Positions 1,426 through 15,730 of a stretch of 20,190 bases of DNA are shown here, one piece after another (position 1 is the stretch's first letter; the number at the start of each line of letters is the position of its first letter). Made by a program: the position numbers and the translations under genes. This DNA is from a virus, in IMG/VR virus record IMGVR_UViG_3300026518_000527, positions 1 to 20,190 of that record. One strand, 5' to 3'. The notes beneath the pieces are model-generated. The model was given only the letters and a program-made list of their open reading frames with translations. It did no database searches and was not told where the DNA came from.

Positions 1426-1688
1426 AGCAGACCCGTTTCATGTCGCTGATCGAGGCAGTCACCAACGTCGTTGTGGGCTACGGCGTGGCGGTGGTCGCGC
1501 AAATTCTGGTTTTTCCGGTGTTCGGTCTGCACACAACGCTCGTGCAGAACCTGAAAATGGGCGGGATTTTCGCGCTGATCTCGATGGGCCGGAGTTTCTT
1601 TTTGCGGCGGTTGTTCGAGGCGATCAAGGTTGCCAATCGCTCCGCCGGCCATGACGCACATGCAGAACCTGAACGGTATCCTCCATGA
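1422..1688 (+). CDS. Small phage membrane protein, DUF7220-like
   Basis: An 88-residue protein with two hydrophobic segments, about residues 13-33 and 46-57, followed by the basic stretch RRLFEAIK. The sequence resembles the small DUF7220 membrane proteins often found next to methylase or terminase genes in Rhodobacterales prophages; the family name is from memory. Its function is unknown. It probably sits in the inner membrane. It starts inside the methyltransferase stop codon. Its last 20 or so codons run into the convergent toxin gene (65-nt overlap), and residues after the RRLFEAIK stretch are hydrophilic and look like antisense of the toxin rather than conserved sequence. The natural C-terminus may have been replaced when the toxin-antitoxin pair arrived. 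Confidence 0.7.
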   Translation: MKQTRFMSLIEAVTNVVVGYGVAVVAQILVFPVFGLHTTLVQNLKMGGIFALISMGRSFFLRRLFEAIKVANRSAGHDAHAEPERYPP

Positions 1689-1935
1689 TCGTGAAATACA
1701 CCCGCCAGCGGGTGGCGCGCCCATAAAGCGCCCGGCGGATTTCAACGTCGAATTGGGCGGATTCCGGTGCGATAGTGTGGGCTTGTGGCATTATCGATAG
1801 CCCGAGGATCAGTTTGCGCATGCCGGTCAGCCACGCCTCGGCGGCACGAGGATTGCGCGCGCGCAGCCAAGTGTATTCTTGCTGGAGATCATCTGCGGCG
1901 TTGGGCGTGACGACAACGCGATATTGGCGGCCCAT
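1624..1935 (-). CDS. RelE/ParE-family toxin
   Basis: A 103-residue protein with the RelE/ParE fold pattern: an N-terminal strand RVVVTPNAADDLQQ, two helices with a WL pair around residues 20-45, and a C-terminal hairpin ending VLHVRHGRRSDW, where the His/Arg-rich strand is typical of the family. RelE members cut mRNA at the ribosome and ParE members poison DNA gyrase; this sequence does not settle which applies. The start codon overlaps the antitoxin stop (TGATG), the usual arrangement for coupled antitoxin-first translation. It converges with and overlaps the 3' end of the DUF7220-like gene. It probably serves as a prophage maintenance or anti-phage module. Confidence 0.88.
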   Translation of the reverse strand: MGRQYRVVVTPNAADDLQQEYTWLRARNPRAAEAWLTGMRKLILGLSIMPQAHTIAPESAQFDVEIRRALYGRATRWRVYFTIMEDTVQVLHVRHGRRSDWQP

Positions 1936-2207
1936 CAGCTGGCAGAAAGATCATCAAAGAAGGCCGAGGCTTCAACGCCTTCGCCCGCACGGGCCTGATC
2001 CAGCCCCTTGCGGATACCGGCAACCGTCTCGGCATAGTCGATCTGGTCCTGCATCTCTTGCCACGCAGCGGCGTCCATGACGACAACCGACGGCTTGCCG
2101 TTCACCGTCAGCACCGAGGGACGGCCGGTTTCCTTGAGGTGGGCGACAAAGCGCGAAGTCTCACGTTTGAACTCGGTAAGGGGACGGATGTCCTTGGTGA
2201 TATCCAT
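1935..2207 (-). CDS. Phd/YefM-family antitoxin
   Basis: A 90-residue antitoxin. Residues 1-55 have the Phd/YefM DNA-binding fold: an N-terminal helix RPLTEFKRETSRFVAHLKET, the strand pair SVLTVNGKPSVVVMDAAAW and the following helix. Residues about 60-90 are acidic and flexible and should wrap the toxin. The family represses its own operon, more strongly when bound to toxin. This fits the palindrome and promoter immediately upstream (2225-2271). The stop shares one base with the toxin start. The reverse-strand reading GGAGCCTCCCC before the ATG offers a GGAG ribosome-binding site. Confidence 0.9.
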   Translation of the reverse strand: MDITKDIRPLTEFKRETSRFVAHLKETGRPSVLTVNGKPSVVVMDAAAWQEMQDQIDYAETVAGIRKGLDQARAGEGVEASAFFDDLSAS

Positions 2208-5920: not shown

Positions 5921-6535
5921 TCAATGGTTCACGGGCCGGTTCCCCTTCCGGTGGCTCAGGAGAGGACCGCGTCGCCGAACCGCGAAACCATAGATGATGC
6001 TGCGAACACGACGTTCATCAATGTCATCGGGGTCATAGGGCCCACCATACCAGGCAAGCATCTGCTGATGTTCTTCGTGCGTGGGATCGCTGACTGCCTC
6101 GAGGAACGCATCATAACCCATGCAGCCGCCGACATCTTCAGGTGGACAGCGGCGGGCACCCTCGATGAAGGACGGGTAATCCGTGTCGGCCTCACCATCG
6201 CGGATATCCTCGACGATCACCTCATGGCGCCAGTCGTCGCCGAAATCGTAAACATAGAGGAACCGGTCAAAGCCGCGATCGAGCAGGGTTTGCAGGCGAA
6301 TCGACTTGGCCTTGTATACGGTGCGGTCTTCAAAACCGTCATCGGGAAAAGGCTCGCCGTAAATCTTGTCGCCAACATGGAACTCGAACAAATGCGCGCC
6401 GTCCCAGCCCATCGTGACCTGAATGATGTGGTGAAGGTCCATCAGTGTCGATGAGCGCGGTACATCTACCCTGCGCCAGACCTTGGGGTCGATGCCCTCC
6501 AATTCAATCCGGATGCGTGCGATCGGTTCAATCAT
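5921..6535 (-). CDS. Plasmid pRiA4b ORF-3-like protein
   Basis: A 204-residue protein matching the pRiA4b ORF-3 family: N-terminal RIRIELEGIDPKVWRRVDVP, LHHIIQVTMGWDGAHLFEF at about 34-52, FLYVYDFGDDWRHEVIVE at about 92-109 and a C-terminal CPPEDVGG followed by GYDAFLEAVSDPTHEEH. The family is widespread on plasmids and phages and its biochemical role is not established. The gene is antisense to the structural operon, between terL and gpW, and its stop codon directly touches the terL stop. AGGGAG lies 11 nt before the ATG. Placement and orientation mark it as a moron-type cargo gene rather than a virion gene. Confidence 0.88.
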   Translation of the reverse strand: MIEPIARIRIELEGIDPKVWRRVDVPRSSTLMDLHHIIQVTMGWDGAHLFEFHVGDKIYGEPFPDDGFEDRTVYKAKSIRLQTLLDRGFDRFLYVYDFGDDWRHEVIVEDIRDGEADTDYPSFIEGARRCPPEDVGGCMGYDAFLEAVSDPTHEEHQQMLAWYGGPYDPDDIDERRVRSIIYGFAVRRRGPLLSHRKGNRPVNH

Positions 6536-11650: not shown

Positions 11651-12505
11651 CTAGGACAGGTAAGCAAGAAGATCGTCGAATGACATAAACTTAACGCCAT
11701 ACTCTTCAGTTAGCCATTGCCGATTGGATGAGTCTAAGATCGAGCTCATTCCGTTGCTATTCCCTACGTCGGCCGAACAAAAGACATCAAGGCCGTATGC
11801 CACATGCGAAGCAATTGCATCACCATCGGCCCATTCGCTGAATGCCCTCTCAATAGCGCGTTCTTCGTGGATATCTTGCGCGTTGTTCAAGGCTTTAAAC
11901 CAGACTTCAGCTGAGTCTTGGGTTGTCATACTCAGCCCGAGTGCTTTTATTTGAGCGAAACCCAGCCCACGATCCTCTATAGCGCTGGAAACATCTTGTA
12001 TTCTGCGAATCCATTCTTCGAGTGACTGATCTCGGTCATTTGCATGATAGAAACCATTGTCGGGATCCTCGATCTTATAAGCGCCTATCCTCGGTGCATC
12101 TTTTAAGACGCGCACGCCGAGCGCGCGCGCTGCTTCTGCTCGAGCGATGATCTCCGGATGCAGGGGTTTCCGCTTTGGCTGTTGTACGACCATGTTCATT
12201 GTAACCGTCTCAATATCGGTAACTCCGGTCACGGAACGAATTGCTTTGGGAAGGTCAGCGTTTTTTGTTCTCGAATTTGTTTCGGGTTGCATATATGTTT
12301 GGGTGCTTTCGAAGACATCCGCCCGATCTTTACGCATAATACCTTCTATCGTTAACATTGTAACTGAATAAAATCCCAAGATTTTCTTGTGTGAGAGTGC
12401 TTCTCGAACAATTTGTAAATAGGGCTGCCGTGGATCTTTAGGAAACCGCTCTGGGCGGCATGCTAAATCAAGAACATTAGTATCAAACGTCACGCGTAGA
12501 GTCAT
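11651..12505 (-). CDS. PIN-domain protein, putative ribonuclease
   Basis: A 284-residue protein. VTFDTNVLDLACRPERF at the N-terminus (D8) is a PIN-domain first strand. YSVTMLTIEGIMRKDRAD supplies E54, and WADGDAIASHVAYGLDVFCSADVG supplies D229 and D246, giving the set of acidic residues that bind metal in PIN nucleases. The C-terminal LTEEYGVKFMSFDDLLAYLS is a typical closing strand and helix. About 160 residues sit between E54 and D229, much more than in VapC toxins (about 130 residues in total), so this is a larger PIN-like protein. No antitoxin gene adjoins it. It is antisense to the tail operon and clearly AT-richer than its neighbours. ATG 12505 has AAGGA 7 nt upstream; starts at 12544 or 12562 lack one. 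A defence, exclusion or lysogeny role is inference. Confidence 0.8.
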   Translation of the reverse strand: MTLRVTFDTNVLDLACRPERFPKDPRQPYLQIVREALSHKKILGFYSVTMLTIEGIMRKDRADVFESTQTYMQPETNSRTKNADLPKAIRSVTGVTDIETVTMNMVVQQPKRKPLHPEIIARAEAARALGVRVLKDAPRIGAYKIEDPDNGFYHANDRDQSLEEWIRRIQDVSSAIEDRGLGFAQIKALGLSMTTQDSAEVWFKALNNAQDIHEERAIERAFSEWADGDAIASHVAYGLDVFCSADVGNSNGMSSILDSSNRQWLTEEYGVKFMSFDDLLAYLS

Positions 12506-12700
12506 AGGTACATCCTTGAGAAATAAATGATCAAGAGGCTTCATTGTGGTTGAACTTATCAAAAATAGAACGCCTCATGGGAAAAGTCTATGTGCGTCCC
12601 GAAGACAACTCAGATGAGGCTATCGTCGTATTAAGTGCCCCGTGAAACTCGAAAACCACCGCCTCAAATAATTCAGTCTTGCTAGCATCAGAGCATAATC
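12506..12700. other. Low-GC spacer between the PIN gene and the tail terminator
   Basis: No gene is supported. The stretch is AT-rich like the PIN gene. GCCTCAT (12572-12578) and ATGAGGC (12614-12620) form a 7-bp inverted repeat with a 35-nt loop, of uncertain meaning. A promoter for the reverse-strand PIN gene is expected here, but no convincing -35/-10 pair was found. The right copy of the 8-bp direct repeat is at 12668-12675. Confidence 0.4.
12668..12675 (+). repeat. Right copy of 8-bp direct repeat flanking the PIN insert
   Basis: ATAATTCA, identical to 11579-11586. Base composition returns to the phage norm just after it, and the tail terminator gene starts 26 nt downstream. Confidence 0.45.
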
Positions 12701-13178: not shown

Positions 13179-14120
13179 ATGGCACGCGCACAAGGCGCGC
13201 GGTCGCAATTGGCGGCCGCGTTTGAGACAACATACGGCACCGCGCCGGCAAGCGGGTTTCACCAGATGCCCTTTGCCAGCGCCTCGCTGGGCGCCGAGCA
13301 ACCGCTTCTGGCCTCGGAGCTTCTCGGCTATGGCCGGGATCCGCTCGCCCCGATCAAGGATGCGGTAACGGCGGATGGCGATATCAAGGTTCCCATTGAT
13401 GCGGAAGCCTTCGGCTTCTGGCTGAAGGCCGCCTTTGGCGCCCCAACCACCACCGGGACCACCAACAAAACCCATACGTTCAAGTCGGGTTCGTGGAGCC
13501 TGCCCAGCATGGCGCTTGAAGTGGCGATGCCCGAGATCCCCCGCTTTGCCATGTATACGGGCTGCATGCTGGATCAGATCTCGTGGCAGATGGCACGCTC
13601 GGGATTGCTGACGGCGGACGTGAAGCTGATCGCCCAGGGCGAGAATGTGGCCACCGCCACGGCTGCCGGAACACCCACAGCCTACAGCCTGCAGCGCTTT
13701 GGGCATTTCAACGGGGCGATCAAGCGGGGCGGTGTGGCGCTCGGCAATATCGTTTCGGCCGATATCACCTATGCCAACAATCTCGACCGCATCGAGACTA
13801 TCCGCTCGGACGGGCGTATCGATGGGGCGGACCCTTCCATCGCCGCCCTCACCGGCAAGATCGACGTGCGCTTTGCCGATACCACGCTGATGGATCAGGC
13901 GCTGAACGGGACGGCCTCTGCGCTGGAGTTCTCCTACACGATCTCCGCCAATGTTAGCCTGACGCTGACGGCCCATGCGGTTTACCTGCCGCGGCCGCGC
14001 GCCGAGATTCAGGGCCCGCAAGGCATTCAGGTCAGCTTTGACTGGCAGGCGGCTTACGACAGCGTGGCGGGACAGATGTGCACCGTTGTTCTCAAGAATA
14101 CTGTCGGGAGTTTCTCTTAA
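13179..14120 (+). CDS. Phage tail tube protein
   Basis: A 313-residue beta-rich protein that should stack into the siphovirus tail tube. Features are the N-terminal RSQLAAAFETTYGTAPASGFHQMPF, DPLAPIKDAVTADGDIKVPID (about 50-70), FGFWLKAAFGAP and a C-terminal LTAHAVYLPRPRAEIQGPQGI then VSFDWQAAYD. This matches the large Phage_tube_2-type proteins in which the first domain has the gpV-like tube fold. GAAAGGA lies about 6 nt before the ATG. Downstream the operon is broken by the IS110 element, 11 bp after the stop codon. Confidence 0.88.
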   Translation: MARAQGARSQLAAAFETTYGTAPASGFHQMPFASASLGAEQPLLASELLGYGRDPLAPIKDAVTADGDIKVPIDAEAFGFWLKAAFGAPTTTGTTNKTHTFKSGSWSLPSMALEVAMPEIPRFAMYTGCMLDQISWQMARSGLLTADVKLIAQGENVATATAAGTPTAYSLQRFGHFNGAIKRGGVALGNIVSADITYANNLDRIETIRSDGRIDGADPSIAALTGKIDVRFADTTLMDQALNGTASALEFSYTISANVSLTLTAHAVYLPRPRAEIQGPQGIQVSFDWQAAYDSVAGQMCTVVLKNTVGSFS

Positions 14121-14129
14121 AAGGAACGA

Positions 14130-14310
14130 GGCTTCCGTGCGATACGGGAGCCGCTGCCCGGCACGGCATTTATGCCGGGCAGCGGCGGGGGATGGATCGA
14201 AGCGAGTTGGGCCTTGAAGGGCCGTTCAGTAGTGTGATCACCCCCGCCTTTTCATGTGGCCTGAACGGATACCCGGGGGAAAGCCCCGCATGAGAAGCAC
14301 AGGAGTTGAA
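14130..14310 (+). ncRNA. Putative IS110 bridge RNA
   Basis: The left end can be folded by hand into the plan known for IS621-type bridge RNAs. A 5' hairpin has a perfect 13-bp stem, 14151-14163 with 14173-14185, and a 9-nt loop. A first internal loop is closed by CGGGGG (14186-14191) with CCCCCG (14241-14246) and topped by GGCC/GGCC (14210-14213, 14220-14223); its 3' side, 14224-14233, is complementary to the right target flank. A second structure pairs 14249-14256 with 14289-14296 and is topped by CGGGG/CCCCG (14274-14278, 14284-14288); it exposes AACGGATAC (14264-14272), identical to the element's right end. GCACAGGAG (14297-14305) is complementary to the proposed left end 14132-14140 in 7 of 9 positions plus one G-T wobble. 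Ends of the RNA are guesses. Confidence 0.65.
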
Positions 14311-15265
14311 AAGGCAGATGAATCCTACAATCGGAATTGACATCGGAAAAGACACACTCGTCATCTATCGTCACCCGGACAAGGCGACCCTTGAAGTCAC
14401 GAACGACAAGGCCGGATTGAGCGCATTTCTGCACTGGCTTGGAACACCTGGGCCAGTGAAGGTCGTCTTCGAGCCGACCGGACCATATCATCGGCTTCTG
14501 GAAAAGACGCTTGCTGCGGCTGGCGTCGCAATGATCAAGGTTAATCCGCGCCAGGCACGACGGTTTGCGGAAGCGATCGGCCAGCTTGCCAAATCGGACC
14601 GTGTCGATGCGGCCATGCTGGCCCGGCTCGGTGCAACCCTGGGTCTCGAGGCGCGGCCCCCGAAGAGTGAAATGCTCAACGATCTAAAGGAGTTGCAGGT
14701 TGCACGTCAGGGTCAGATGAAGGACCGCATCGCGCTGGCGCACCGGCTGCAACATGCCACCATTGCGTTGGTCAAGCGGCAACTCAGGGCGCGCATCCGG
14801 CAAGTCGATACCCATCTTGCCCAGATTGATGCCGCCATGCTCGATGCCATCCGGGCCGATGAGGCACTGTCGCGCCGTTTCGATATCCTGACCAGTATCC
14901 CCGGCATCGGCTCGATTGCGGCCTGCGCCATCCTGATCGAGATGCCCGAGCTCGGTCAGATGGAAGCGCGACAGGCGGCCGCTCTGGCCGGCCTCGCGCC
15001 GATCACCCGGCAGTCAGGGAGGTGGAAGGGTCATTCCCACATTCGGGGCGGACGGGCCGGCCTGCGCCGCGCCCTTTATATGCCCGCCCTCGTCGCAGCG
15101 CGATACAACCCGCCACTGCGCGAAAAATATGGGGCGCTCATCAGCAGCGGAAAACCCGCGAAAGTCGCCATCACCGCGATCATGCGAAAGCTGATCGTCC
15201 TCGCCAATGCGCTTCTGCGCGATAACCGAAAGTGGACACCAAATGCCTCTTGATCACAACGGATA
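14132..15265 (+). mobile_element. IS110-family insertion sequence
   Basis: An element of about 1,134 bp carrying a DEDD transposase and a 5' non-coding end, with no terminal inverted repeats, as usual for IS110. The right edge is placed at the CT dinucleotide 15266-15267 and the left edge at CT 14132-14133. This is supported by matches to the predicted guide RNA: a 9-nt stretch (14264-14272) is identical to the right end 15258-15266, and 14224-14233 is complementary in 9 of 10 positions to 15265-15274. The left edge is less sure; an alternative CT occurs at 14114-14115. It lies in the operon orientation between tail tube and tail chaperone. Joining the flanks restores a GAGG tract 9 nt before the chaperone ATG. 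Confidence 0.85.
14318..15253 (+). CDS. IS110-family transposase (DEDD/serine recombinase)
   Basis: A 311-residue recombinase from ATG 14318; a TTG at 14306 would add four residues. The N-terminal RuvC-like DEDD domain shows GIDIGKD (D8), FEPTG (E52) and KSDRVDAAML (D94, D97). A central helical segment follows at about 115-185. The C-terminal Transposase_20 domain holds LTSIPGIGSIAACAILIEMPEL and ALAGLAPITRQSGRWKGHS, where S233 of RQSG is the expected nucleophilic serine. IS110 enzymes use a bridge RNA to pair target and donor DNA. The frame is intact with no visible damage, so the element may be active. AGGAG and AAAAGG tracts precede the start. The stop codon is 12 bp inside the proposed right end. 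Confidence 0.95.
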   Translation: MNPTIGIDIGKDTLVIYRHPDKATLEVTNDKAGLSAFLHWLGTPGPVKVVFEPTGPYHRLLEKTLAAAGVAMIKVNPRQARRFAEAIGQLAKSDRVDAAMLARLGATLGLEARPPKSEMLNDLKELQVARQGQMKDRIALAHRLQHATIALVKRQLRARIRQVDTHLAQIDAAMLDAIRADEALSRRFDILTSIPGIGSIAACAILIEMPELGQMEARQAAALAGLAPITRQSGRWKGHSHIRGGRAGLRRALYMPALVAARYNPPLREKYGALISSGKPAKVAITAIMRKLIVLANALLRDNRKWTPNAS

Positions 15266-15274
15266 CTACTGACC

Positions 15275-15730
15275 ATGCTGAAGCTTGATCTTTCAAACGA
15301 GCCCAAATGGCTGGACCTCGGCCACGGCGTGCGTGTGCTTCTCGGCCCTCTCACCACGGCCATGATGGTGACTGCGCGCAATGACCCCGCCATCGCCACA
15401 CTTCCCGAAGACGCAACGGATGAAGAAAGCGCGCTTGCGTTTGCCAAGGCGCTGGCCCGCAATACGCTGTTTGAGTGGGAGGGTGTCGGTGATGCCGAGG
15501 GCAACGTGATCCCCGTCAGCCCCGAGGCGATCGATGCGCTGCTGGATATCTGGCCGTTCTTCGAGGCCTTCCAGACAGATTACGTCGCCAAGGGGCTGGT
15601 GCTGGAACAGGAAAAAAACGCCTCACCGCCCTTGCCGAATGGCTCTTCGGCGGGGGCGGAGACTACTGCAAGGGCTGCGAGCCCCGCGAGGCCTGCCCGA
15701 AAACCTGCCCCGACTGCCCGCAAATCCTGA
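15275..15730 (+). CDS. Tail assembly chaperone, unshifted product (gpG-like)
   Basis: A 151-residue product of the zero frame. Residues 1-112 look like folded protein: KWLDLGHGVRVLLGPLTTAMMVTARNDPA, DEESALAFAKALARNTLFEWEGVGD and EAIDALLDIWPFFEAFQTDYVAKGLVLEQ. Residues after about 115 are low-complexity alanine, proline, arginine and serine, which suggests the zero frame is not the main coding frame beyond the slippery site. In lambda, G and the frameshifted GT bind the tape measure and recruit tube protein. Position between tail tube and tape measure fits. The IS110 insertion directly upstream leaves ATG 15275 without a Shine-Dalgarno sequence. Confidence 0.85.
   Translation: MLKLDLSNEPKWLDLGHGVRVLLGPLTTAMMVTARNDPAIATLPEDATDEESALAFAKALARNTLFEWEGVGDAEGNVIPVSPEAIDALLDIWPFFEAFQTDYVAKGLVLEQEKNASPPLPNGSSAGAETTARAASPARPARKPAPTARKS
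15613..15659 (+). promoter_or_regulatory. Programmed -1 ribosomal frameshift signal
   Basis: A AAA AAC (15613-15619) is a canonical X XXY YYZ slippery heptamer in the chaperone frame. Six nucleotides later a two-part stem begins: CCGCCC (15626-15631) pairs with GGGCGG (15654-15659), and inside it GCCGAA (15634-15639) pairs with TTCGGC (15646-15651) around a 6-nt loop, with a 2-by-2 internal loop between the stems. A -1 slip enters a frame that stays open to the stop at 15958-15960. Confidence 0.8.

What the first reader, a model, noticed from the sequence alone, without database searches (positions are those of the whole stretch)
14130..15274. IS110 left end reads as a bridge RNA whose guides match its own ends and present target
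Seen: a 5' hairpin with a perfect 13-bp stem, then two stem-closed loops. In loop one, 14224-14233 is complementary in 9/10 positions to 15265-15274, spanning the right junction and a CT dinucleotide. In loop two, AACGGATAC (14264-14272) is identical to the right end 15258-15266. GCACAGGAG (14297-14305) pairs 7/9 plus a wobble with the proposed left end 14132-14140. AGCGAG (14201-14206) resembles the left flank AACGAG (14125-14130), one G-T wobble. Known: IS621-type IS110 elements use an RNA with target and donor guide loops around a CT core. Inferred: this RNA guided insertion here; the left-target guide is the weakest part.
Basis: partly seen in the sequence, partly recalled or inferred. Interest (0 to 1): 0.78.

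Follow-up and report, generated by a model that had tools for sequence, protein, structure and literature searches.

The report
RNA-guided IS110 at phage stop codon
A small jumping gene in a bacterial prophage carries a guide RNA that matches the stop codon of a phage tail gene, and its own first bases supply a new stop codon; relatives sit in the same way at the ends of other phage building-block genes, so these elements may have specialised in living inside phages without breaking them.

Summary
The element is real: an intact single-copy IS110-group insertion sequence in a prophage morphogenesis block, with a left-end bridge RNA. Comparison of 41 relatives supports the RNA fold (23 of 30 pairs covary). 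In 37 relatives the guides match the element's own flanks far better than other elements' flanks (0 of 20,000 permutations). The RDG is GAGAAGC (14292-14298) and the LTG is AAGCGAGTT (14200-14208). Empty sites in related phages (GTCGGGAGTTACTGA) match the reconstruction. So the target is the Ser-Tyr-stop end of the tail-tube gene, and the element's first bases restore a stop (VGSY* becomes VGSFS*). Relatives sit the same way at the stop codons of tail tube, cement protein, terminase and a chromosomal gshA. The in-frame stop (TAA, TAG or TGA) is in all clade members examined and in no other relative whose left end could be read. Some copies sit mid-gene. Bridge-RNA IS110s are known; I found no description of a lineage aimed at phage late-gene stop codons that replaces the stop. 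Function is inferred, not shown.

The parts
14113..15267 (+). IS110-group insertion sequence, 1155 bp counting the right core once; single copy in this genome
   Evidence: joining the flanks gives GTCGGGAGTTACTGACC, matching empty sites
13179..14120 (+). Target gene: phage tail tube protein; last codons TTC TCT TAA (14112-14120) come from the junction and the element
   Evidence: PF18906 E 3.5e-61; PHROG 290 tail; relatives end ..SY*
14104..14112 (+). Left target plus core TT (TCGGGAG.TT)
   Evidence: empty site L097 GTCGGGAGTTACTGATCATG
14113..14119 (+). Right donor (left end of the element), TCTCTTA
   Evidence: shared with L091, L002, L003; most other relatives TGTCTTA
14118..14120 (+). In-frame TAA supplied by the element, replacing the tail-tube TGA; also first bases of the presumed -10 box of the circle promoter
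   Evidence: TAA here, TAG in L002/L003, TGA in L365, TAA in other clade members, TAT in the other relatives read
14150..14186 (+). Bridge RNA 5' stem-loop
   Evidence: 7 of 7 counted pairs covary
14187..14245 (+). Target-binding loop with its closing stems
   Evidence: helices 3-5
14200..14208 (+). Left target guide AAGCGAGTT (includes core UU)
   Evidence: no other element matches this left flank better; family permutation z 10.2
14224..14234 (+). Right target guide GTTCAGTAGTG (pairs with CTACTGA: core, remainder of the Tyr codon, TGA stop)
   Evidence: family permutation z 10.8
14246..14315 (+). Donor-binding loop, closed by GCCTTTTCA (14246-14254) with TGAAAAGGC (14307-14315)
   Evidence: fold; helices 6-8
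14264..14273 (+). Left donor guide AACGGATACC
   Evidence: identical to the right end over AACGGATAC; conserved in the family
14292..14298 (+). Right donor guide GAGAAGC, pairs with left end GTTTCTC (14110-14116) with one G-T wobble
   Evidence: L002/L003: GAGAAGC with GCTTCTC; others GACAAGC with GCTTGTC
14318..15253 (+). IS110 recombinase (DEDD RuvC plus Tnp_20), intact
   Evidence: PF01548, PF02371; ISCro4 9t56 E 2e-25, IS621 8wt6 E 7e-24
15257..15267 (+). Left donor (right end) CAACGGATA plus core CT
15268..15274 (+). Right target ACTGACC (contains the original TGA stop)
15250..15255 (+). TTGATC: presumed -35 box, 17 nt from TAAAAG (14118-14123) across the circular right-end/left-end junction
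   Evidence: sequence reading; circle promoter known for IS621 (PMC11208160); not tested
15275..15730 (+). Next phage gene, tail assembly chaperone, intact
   Evidence: PHROG 313 E 2e-19

Best explanation
An IS110-group element that moves by bridge-RNA-guided recombination and whose target loop is aimed at the 3' end of the phage tail-tube gene (Ser-Tyr-stop, around GCGAGYTACTGA). Shown by comparison: the ends, the RNA fold, the guides as a family property, the empty site and the exact junctions. Inferred: the circular element, paired through LDG and RDG, recombined with a prophage or phage at GGGAG.TT.ACTGACC; top-strand exchange left the target core TT on the left and the donor core CT on the right. 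Because the target core fixes the reading frame, the first bases of the element are read as Phe-Ser-stop, so the tail-tube protein is changed only at its very end, and the transposase lies co-oriented in the late operon. Inferred with less certainty: the in-frame stop is an adaptation that makes insertion at gene ends harmless, and the lineage has retargeted between genes of the same phage module.
For: Pfam and PDB matches to IS110/IS621. Left end from L091, L002, L003 and the family. Covariation: 23 of 30 pairs, 95.9% of cells paired, none of 500 shuffles as high. Guide-to-own-flank test: LTG 6.59 versus 4.88, RTG 7.11 versus 5.10, 0 of 20,000 permutations. Empty sites: L096, L097, L113, L176. 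The tail-tube stop region holds a site unsurpassed elsewhere in the locus for this guide in 41 of 109 tail-tube loci, 13/14 in L113 and L176; mean match 9.44, shuffled guides 7.64, maximum 9.0. Tail-tube stop insertions in other phages: L285/L159, L160, L305, L314, L321, L293, L352, L358, G215. Cement protein stop L351/L361 with empty sites L143/L155; terminase stop L362; gshA stop L365. Stop at the same left-end codon in every clade left end examined (TAA, TAG, TGA), TAT in the other relatives whose left end was read. L423 keeps only TGTCTTAAG, with its stop, at the terminase end.
Against: No RNA, binding or transposition data. The LTG matches the present site only partly (4/7 plus core), and a site matching this loosely would occur many times per genome. 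In the L159/L210 group the LTG matches only with a 2-nt offset. The left-end codon overlaps the presumed -10 box, so the stop could be a by-product. L353 and L363 sit mid-gene in DUF6441 and would truncate it. How the two stop-carrying clades are related is unresolved, so the number of origins is unknown, and shared descent of phage regions means the tail-tube insertions are not all independent events.
Confidence: 0.85

Rival explanations
1. Ordinary IS110 whose guide happens to match a phage gene end; the TAA/TAG/TGA in the left end only reflects changes in the -10 box of the circle promoter, and the abundance of phage copies reflects which databases were searched.
For: The codon overlaps the presumed -10. 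Family IS110s hit many unrelated sites. Much of the clade was found in a viral collection. L353/L363 are mid-gene.
Against: The variants are exactly the three stop codons; TAGAAG and TGAGAA are poor -10 boxes. Four different genes are hit at the last codon in the frame that uses the stop. The chromosomal gshA copy shows the same pattern outside phages.
Confidence: 0.35
2. One reading: left end at 14132, RDG 14297-14305, LTG 14201-14206, left target AACGAG.
For: The stated pairings exist.
Confidence: 0.02
3. The left end is a structured leader or a relic and the complementarities are coincidental or ancestral, with no present guiding role.
For: LTG and RD matches taken alone in this one sequence are at chance (722 and 570 of 2000); single copy, no second insertion in this genome.
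Against: Family-wide guide-flank matching and covariation; intact recombinase.
Confidence: 0.04

Closest known systems
IS621 and IS110-group bridge RNA (PMC11208160; PMC11208158)
   Same: DEDD plus Tnp_20 recombinase, RNA in the left end, 5' stem-loop, target loop then donor loop, guides overlapping the core, T as second core base, presumed circle promoter.
   Different: IS621 targets REP elements; here the target is a phage late-gene stop codon and the left end carries an in-frame stop. Left core is TT (IS621 also accepts TT, PMC11208158).
seekRNA-guided IS110/IS1111 (PMC11187229)
   Same: RNA-determined target; natural retargeting between related elements.
   Different: A search of that text found no mention of phage targets or stop codons.
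ISCro4 transposase (PDB 9t56)
   Same: Closest solved sequence (E 2e-25).
   Different: Distant; its target was not compared.
Helper-embedded PICIs (PMC10111431)
   Same: A mobile-element clade that repeatedly targets prophage late genes, co-oriented with them.
   Different: Uses a protein integrase and interrupts the gene until excision; here an RNA guides and the gene end is restored.
Tn7 at glmS (own knowledge)
   Same: Insertion at the conserved 3' end of a gene without harming it.
   Different: Protein-directed, inserts downstream of the gene.

Membership tests
IS110 group (IS110/IS1111 family) | DEDD RuvC-like plus Transposase_20 recombinase with the catalytic serine | tested here: met
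   PF01548 and PF02371 above cut-off; aligned to ISCro4 over 298 residues, with the D, E, D, D stretches and the serine of RQSG in register
IS110 group (IS110/IS1111 family) | Long noncoding left end upstream of the gene holding a structured RNA with two internal loops | tested here: met
IS110 group (IS110/IS1111 family) | First loop matches target, second loop matches donor, each including the core | tested here: met
   LTG match partial in this copy
IS110 group (IS110/IS1111 family) | CT core at both ends | tested here: inconclusive
   right CT, left TT; empty sites show TT or CT as target core; IS621 tolerates TT (PMC11208158)
IS110 group (IS110/IS1111 family) | Circular intermediate with right-end/left-end junction promoter | not testable with these tools
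   TTGATC and TAAAAG spaced 17 nt on paper only
IS110 group (IS110/IS1111 family) | Recombinase binds the RNA and recombination needs it | not testable with these tools
   needs RNA pulldown and recombination assays
IS1111 group | RNA in the right end, long subterminal inverted repeats | tested here: not met
   RNA lies in the left end; right end after the stop codon is about 14 bp
Helper-embedded PICI | Tyrosine integrase and AlpA of a satellite inside a late gene | tested here: not met
   only the IS110 gene lies between 14113 and 15267

The most novel reading that the evidence does not exclude
A lineage of IS110 elements has become a resident of alphaproteobacterial phages by aiming its bridge RNA at aromatic-codon-plus-stop sites of conserved late genes (tail tube, cement protein, terminase) and carrying a replacement stop codon in its left end, so that insertion spares the gene; retargeting moves it between neighbouring genes of the same module.
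Probability: 0.5. Interest if true: 0.72.

Novelty: new variant of a known kind. Interest (0 to 1): 0.6.

Why it matters
It would show how bridge RNAs are retargeted in nature and what keeps an RNA-guided insertion harmless: a conserved target that many related phages have, a fixed frame, and a stop codon inside the element. It also gives a natural series of guide and target pairs for testing IS110 specificity, and a possible route for IS110 spread by phages.

Tried and rejected
Rfam: no family reaches its threshold. Annotated phage records: only relatives under 60% identity (mostly 27-34%), none of this clade. Other copies in the same genome: none. The IS621 and seekRNA texts searched for stop codon or phage targets: none found. 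In one search one row (L020) was given a wrong left end by the script; its true left end is CTTATCTTATG, also without the stop; two rows (L012, L025) had none assigned. In the permutation test some target-loop anchors were misplaced by the script (for example L029, L210), which weakens the test rather than inflating it. One left flank there (L013) was also taken from a neighbouring position.

Full report
Setting. The window is a whole 20-kb contig carrying prophage morphogenesis genes: terminase GpA, lambda-type portal, capsid E, tail terminator, tail tube, tail assembly chaperone, tape measure. Between tail tube and chaperone lies one IS110 gene (PF01548 and PF02371), the only copy in the genome.

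Ends. Most relatives begin with core CT followed by TGTCTTATG and end with AACGGATA and core CT. The closest relatives, L002 and L003, begin GCTTCTCTTAG; a 99% identical left-end fragment in another genome of the genus (L091) begins CTTCTCTTAAAAGGAACGAGG. The window reads GAGTTTCTCTTAAAAGGAACGAGG, so the left junction is AGTT|TCTCTT at 14112/14113. Related phages without the element read GTCGGGAGTTACTGATCATG (L097), GTTGGGAGCTACTGATATG (L096) and GTGGCGAGTTACTGACCATG (L113), in agreement with the sequence obtained by joining the flanks at the corrected core.

Guides. LTG AAGCGAGTT (14200-14208), RTG GTTCAGTAGTG (14224-14234), LDG AACGGATACC (14264-14273), RDG GAGAAGC (14292-14298). The RDG changes with the left end: GAGAAGC with TCTC in the window, L002 and L003, GACAAGC with TGTC in the others. 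In the window alone only the RTG and LDG matches are beyond chance (9 and 2 of 2000 shuffles); LTG and RDG rest on the family. Over 37 elements the target guides match their own flanks better than permuted flanks in every one of 20,000 permutations, for left and right guides.

Fold. On 41 left ends, 23 of 30 consensus pairs have compensatory double changes, 95.9% of cells are paired, and sliding the partner by one to three columns drops this to 37-56%. The donor loop is closed by GCCTTTTCA with TGAAAAGGC, just before the start codon at 14318.

What it targets. The site is the last codon and stop of the tail-tube gene: GGG AGT TAC TGA. After insertion the gene reads GGG AGT TTC TCT TAA, so VGSY* becomes VGSFS*. 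For the guide-defined target GCGAGYTACTGAAC, the tail-tube stop region holds the best site of the locus (none better elsewhere) in 41 of 109 related loci, and 13/14 in L113 and L176; shuffled guides do worse (9.44 versus 7.64, maximum 9.0). The guide therefore fits sister phages better than the present one, which has GGGAG.

Relatives do the same. Tail-tube stop insertions occur in L285/L159, L160, L305, L314, L321, L293, L352, L358 and genome G215, read as ..LS*. L351/L361 sit at the stop of a cement protein (PF09956), whose empty sites are in L143 and L155; L362 at the stop of a terminase large subunit; L365, the sister left end in genome G283, at the stop of a glutamate-cysteine ligase (PF04107), with TGA as the new stop. 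Nearly all of 80 related terminase genes end in TGGTT[CT]TGA, and one of them (L423) keeps only TGTCTTAAG there, which looks like a left-over of the element with its stop. In this clade the left-end codon is always a stop (TAA, TAG in L002/L003, TGA in L365); in the other relatives whose left end could be read it is TAT. L002 lies just after a gene's own stop, and L003 has the same left flank. Against a simple rule, L353 and L363 lie inside DUF6441 at GGNTTCTGG and would truncate it, L355/L366 lie at the tail-tube end in the opposite orientation, and another related class sits inside a DNA methyltransferase gene.

Mechanism. Established for IS621: circle formation, paired loops, top-strand exchange after the core (PMC11208160, PMC11208158). 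Applied here it explains why the left core is TT (target) and the right core CT (donor). The right end and left end would form a promoter in the circle (TTGATC, 17 nt, TAAAAG), by inspection only. The step that insertion is made harmless by the carried stop is inference: the stop codon overlaps the presumed -10 box, so a promoter explanation remains open, though TAGAAG and TGAGAA are poor -10 boxes.

Phylogeny. The window groups with L002/L003 (100/99) and the other stop-carrying elements form a second clade (100/100); whether these two are sisters is not resolved (84/35). Tail-tube targeting therefore arose twice or was kept from a common ancestor; both remain possible.

Known or new. Bridge RNA and natural retargeting of IS110s are published. 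A protein-integrase clade that repeatedly targets prophage late genes is known (PMC10111431). I found no report of a bridge-RNA lineage aimed at late-gene stop codons with a replacement stop; the library searched holds only open papers.

Noticed in passing
window 15610-15619 (GGAAAAAAAC): Slippery site in the tail assembly chaperone gene; a -1 frame runs on to 15960 (..EQMEQHDG*), as in lambda G/GT.
   Followed up: partly
window 1624-2207, minus strand: ParE-like toxin (PF05016) and Phd/YefM antitoxin (PF02604) pair near the start of the prophage block.
   Followed up: partly
window 5921-6535, minus strand: pRiA4b ORF-3-like gene (PF07929) lying backwards between terminase and portal.
   Followed up: no
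window 11651-12562, minus strand: 303-aa ORF without Pfam match, backwards between head and tail genes.
   Followed up: no
L423 1059-1075: Terminase gene ending GGATGGTTGTCTTAAGATGACGG: apparent scar of the IS110 left end, with its stop codon, without the rest of the element.
   Followed up: partly
L355 and L366/L208 (genome G260, contig 20): Element of the same clade at the tail-tube end in the opposite orientation, at CATCAGTAGGT.CT; the contig ends inside the element.
   Followed up: no
L004, L005, L083-L086: A related element class inserted in a phage C5 DNA methyltransferase gene at a conserved coding site.
   Followed up: partly
L159, L210, L293, L314: The LTG of this group matches the target only if two target bases are skipped before the core; unexplained.
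   Followed up: partly
G000:C6:47899-48213: A second, partial tail-tube gene with one internal stop in the same genome.
   Followed up: no
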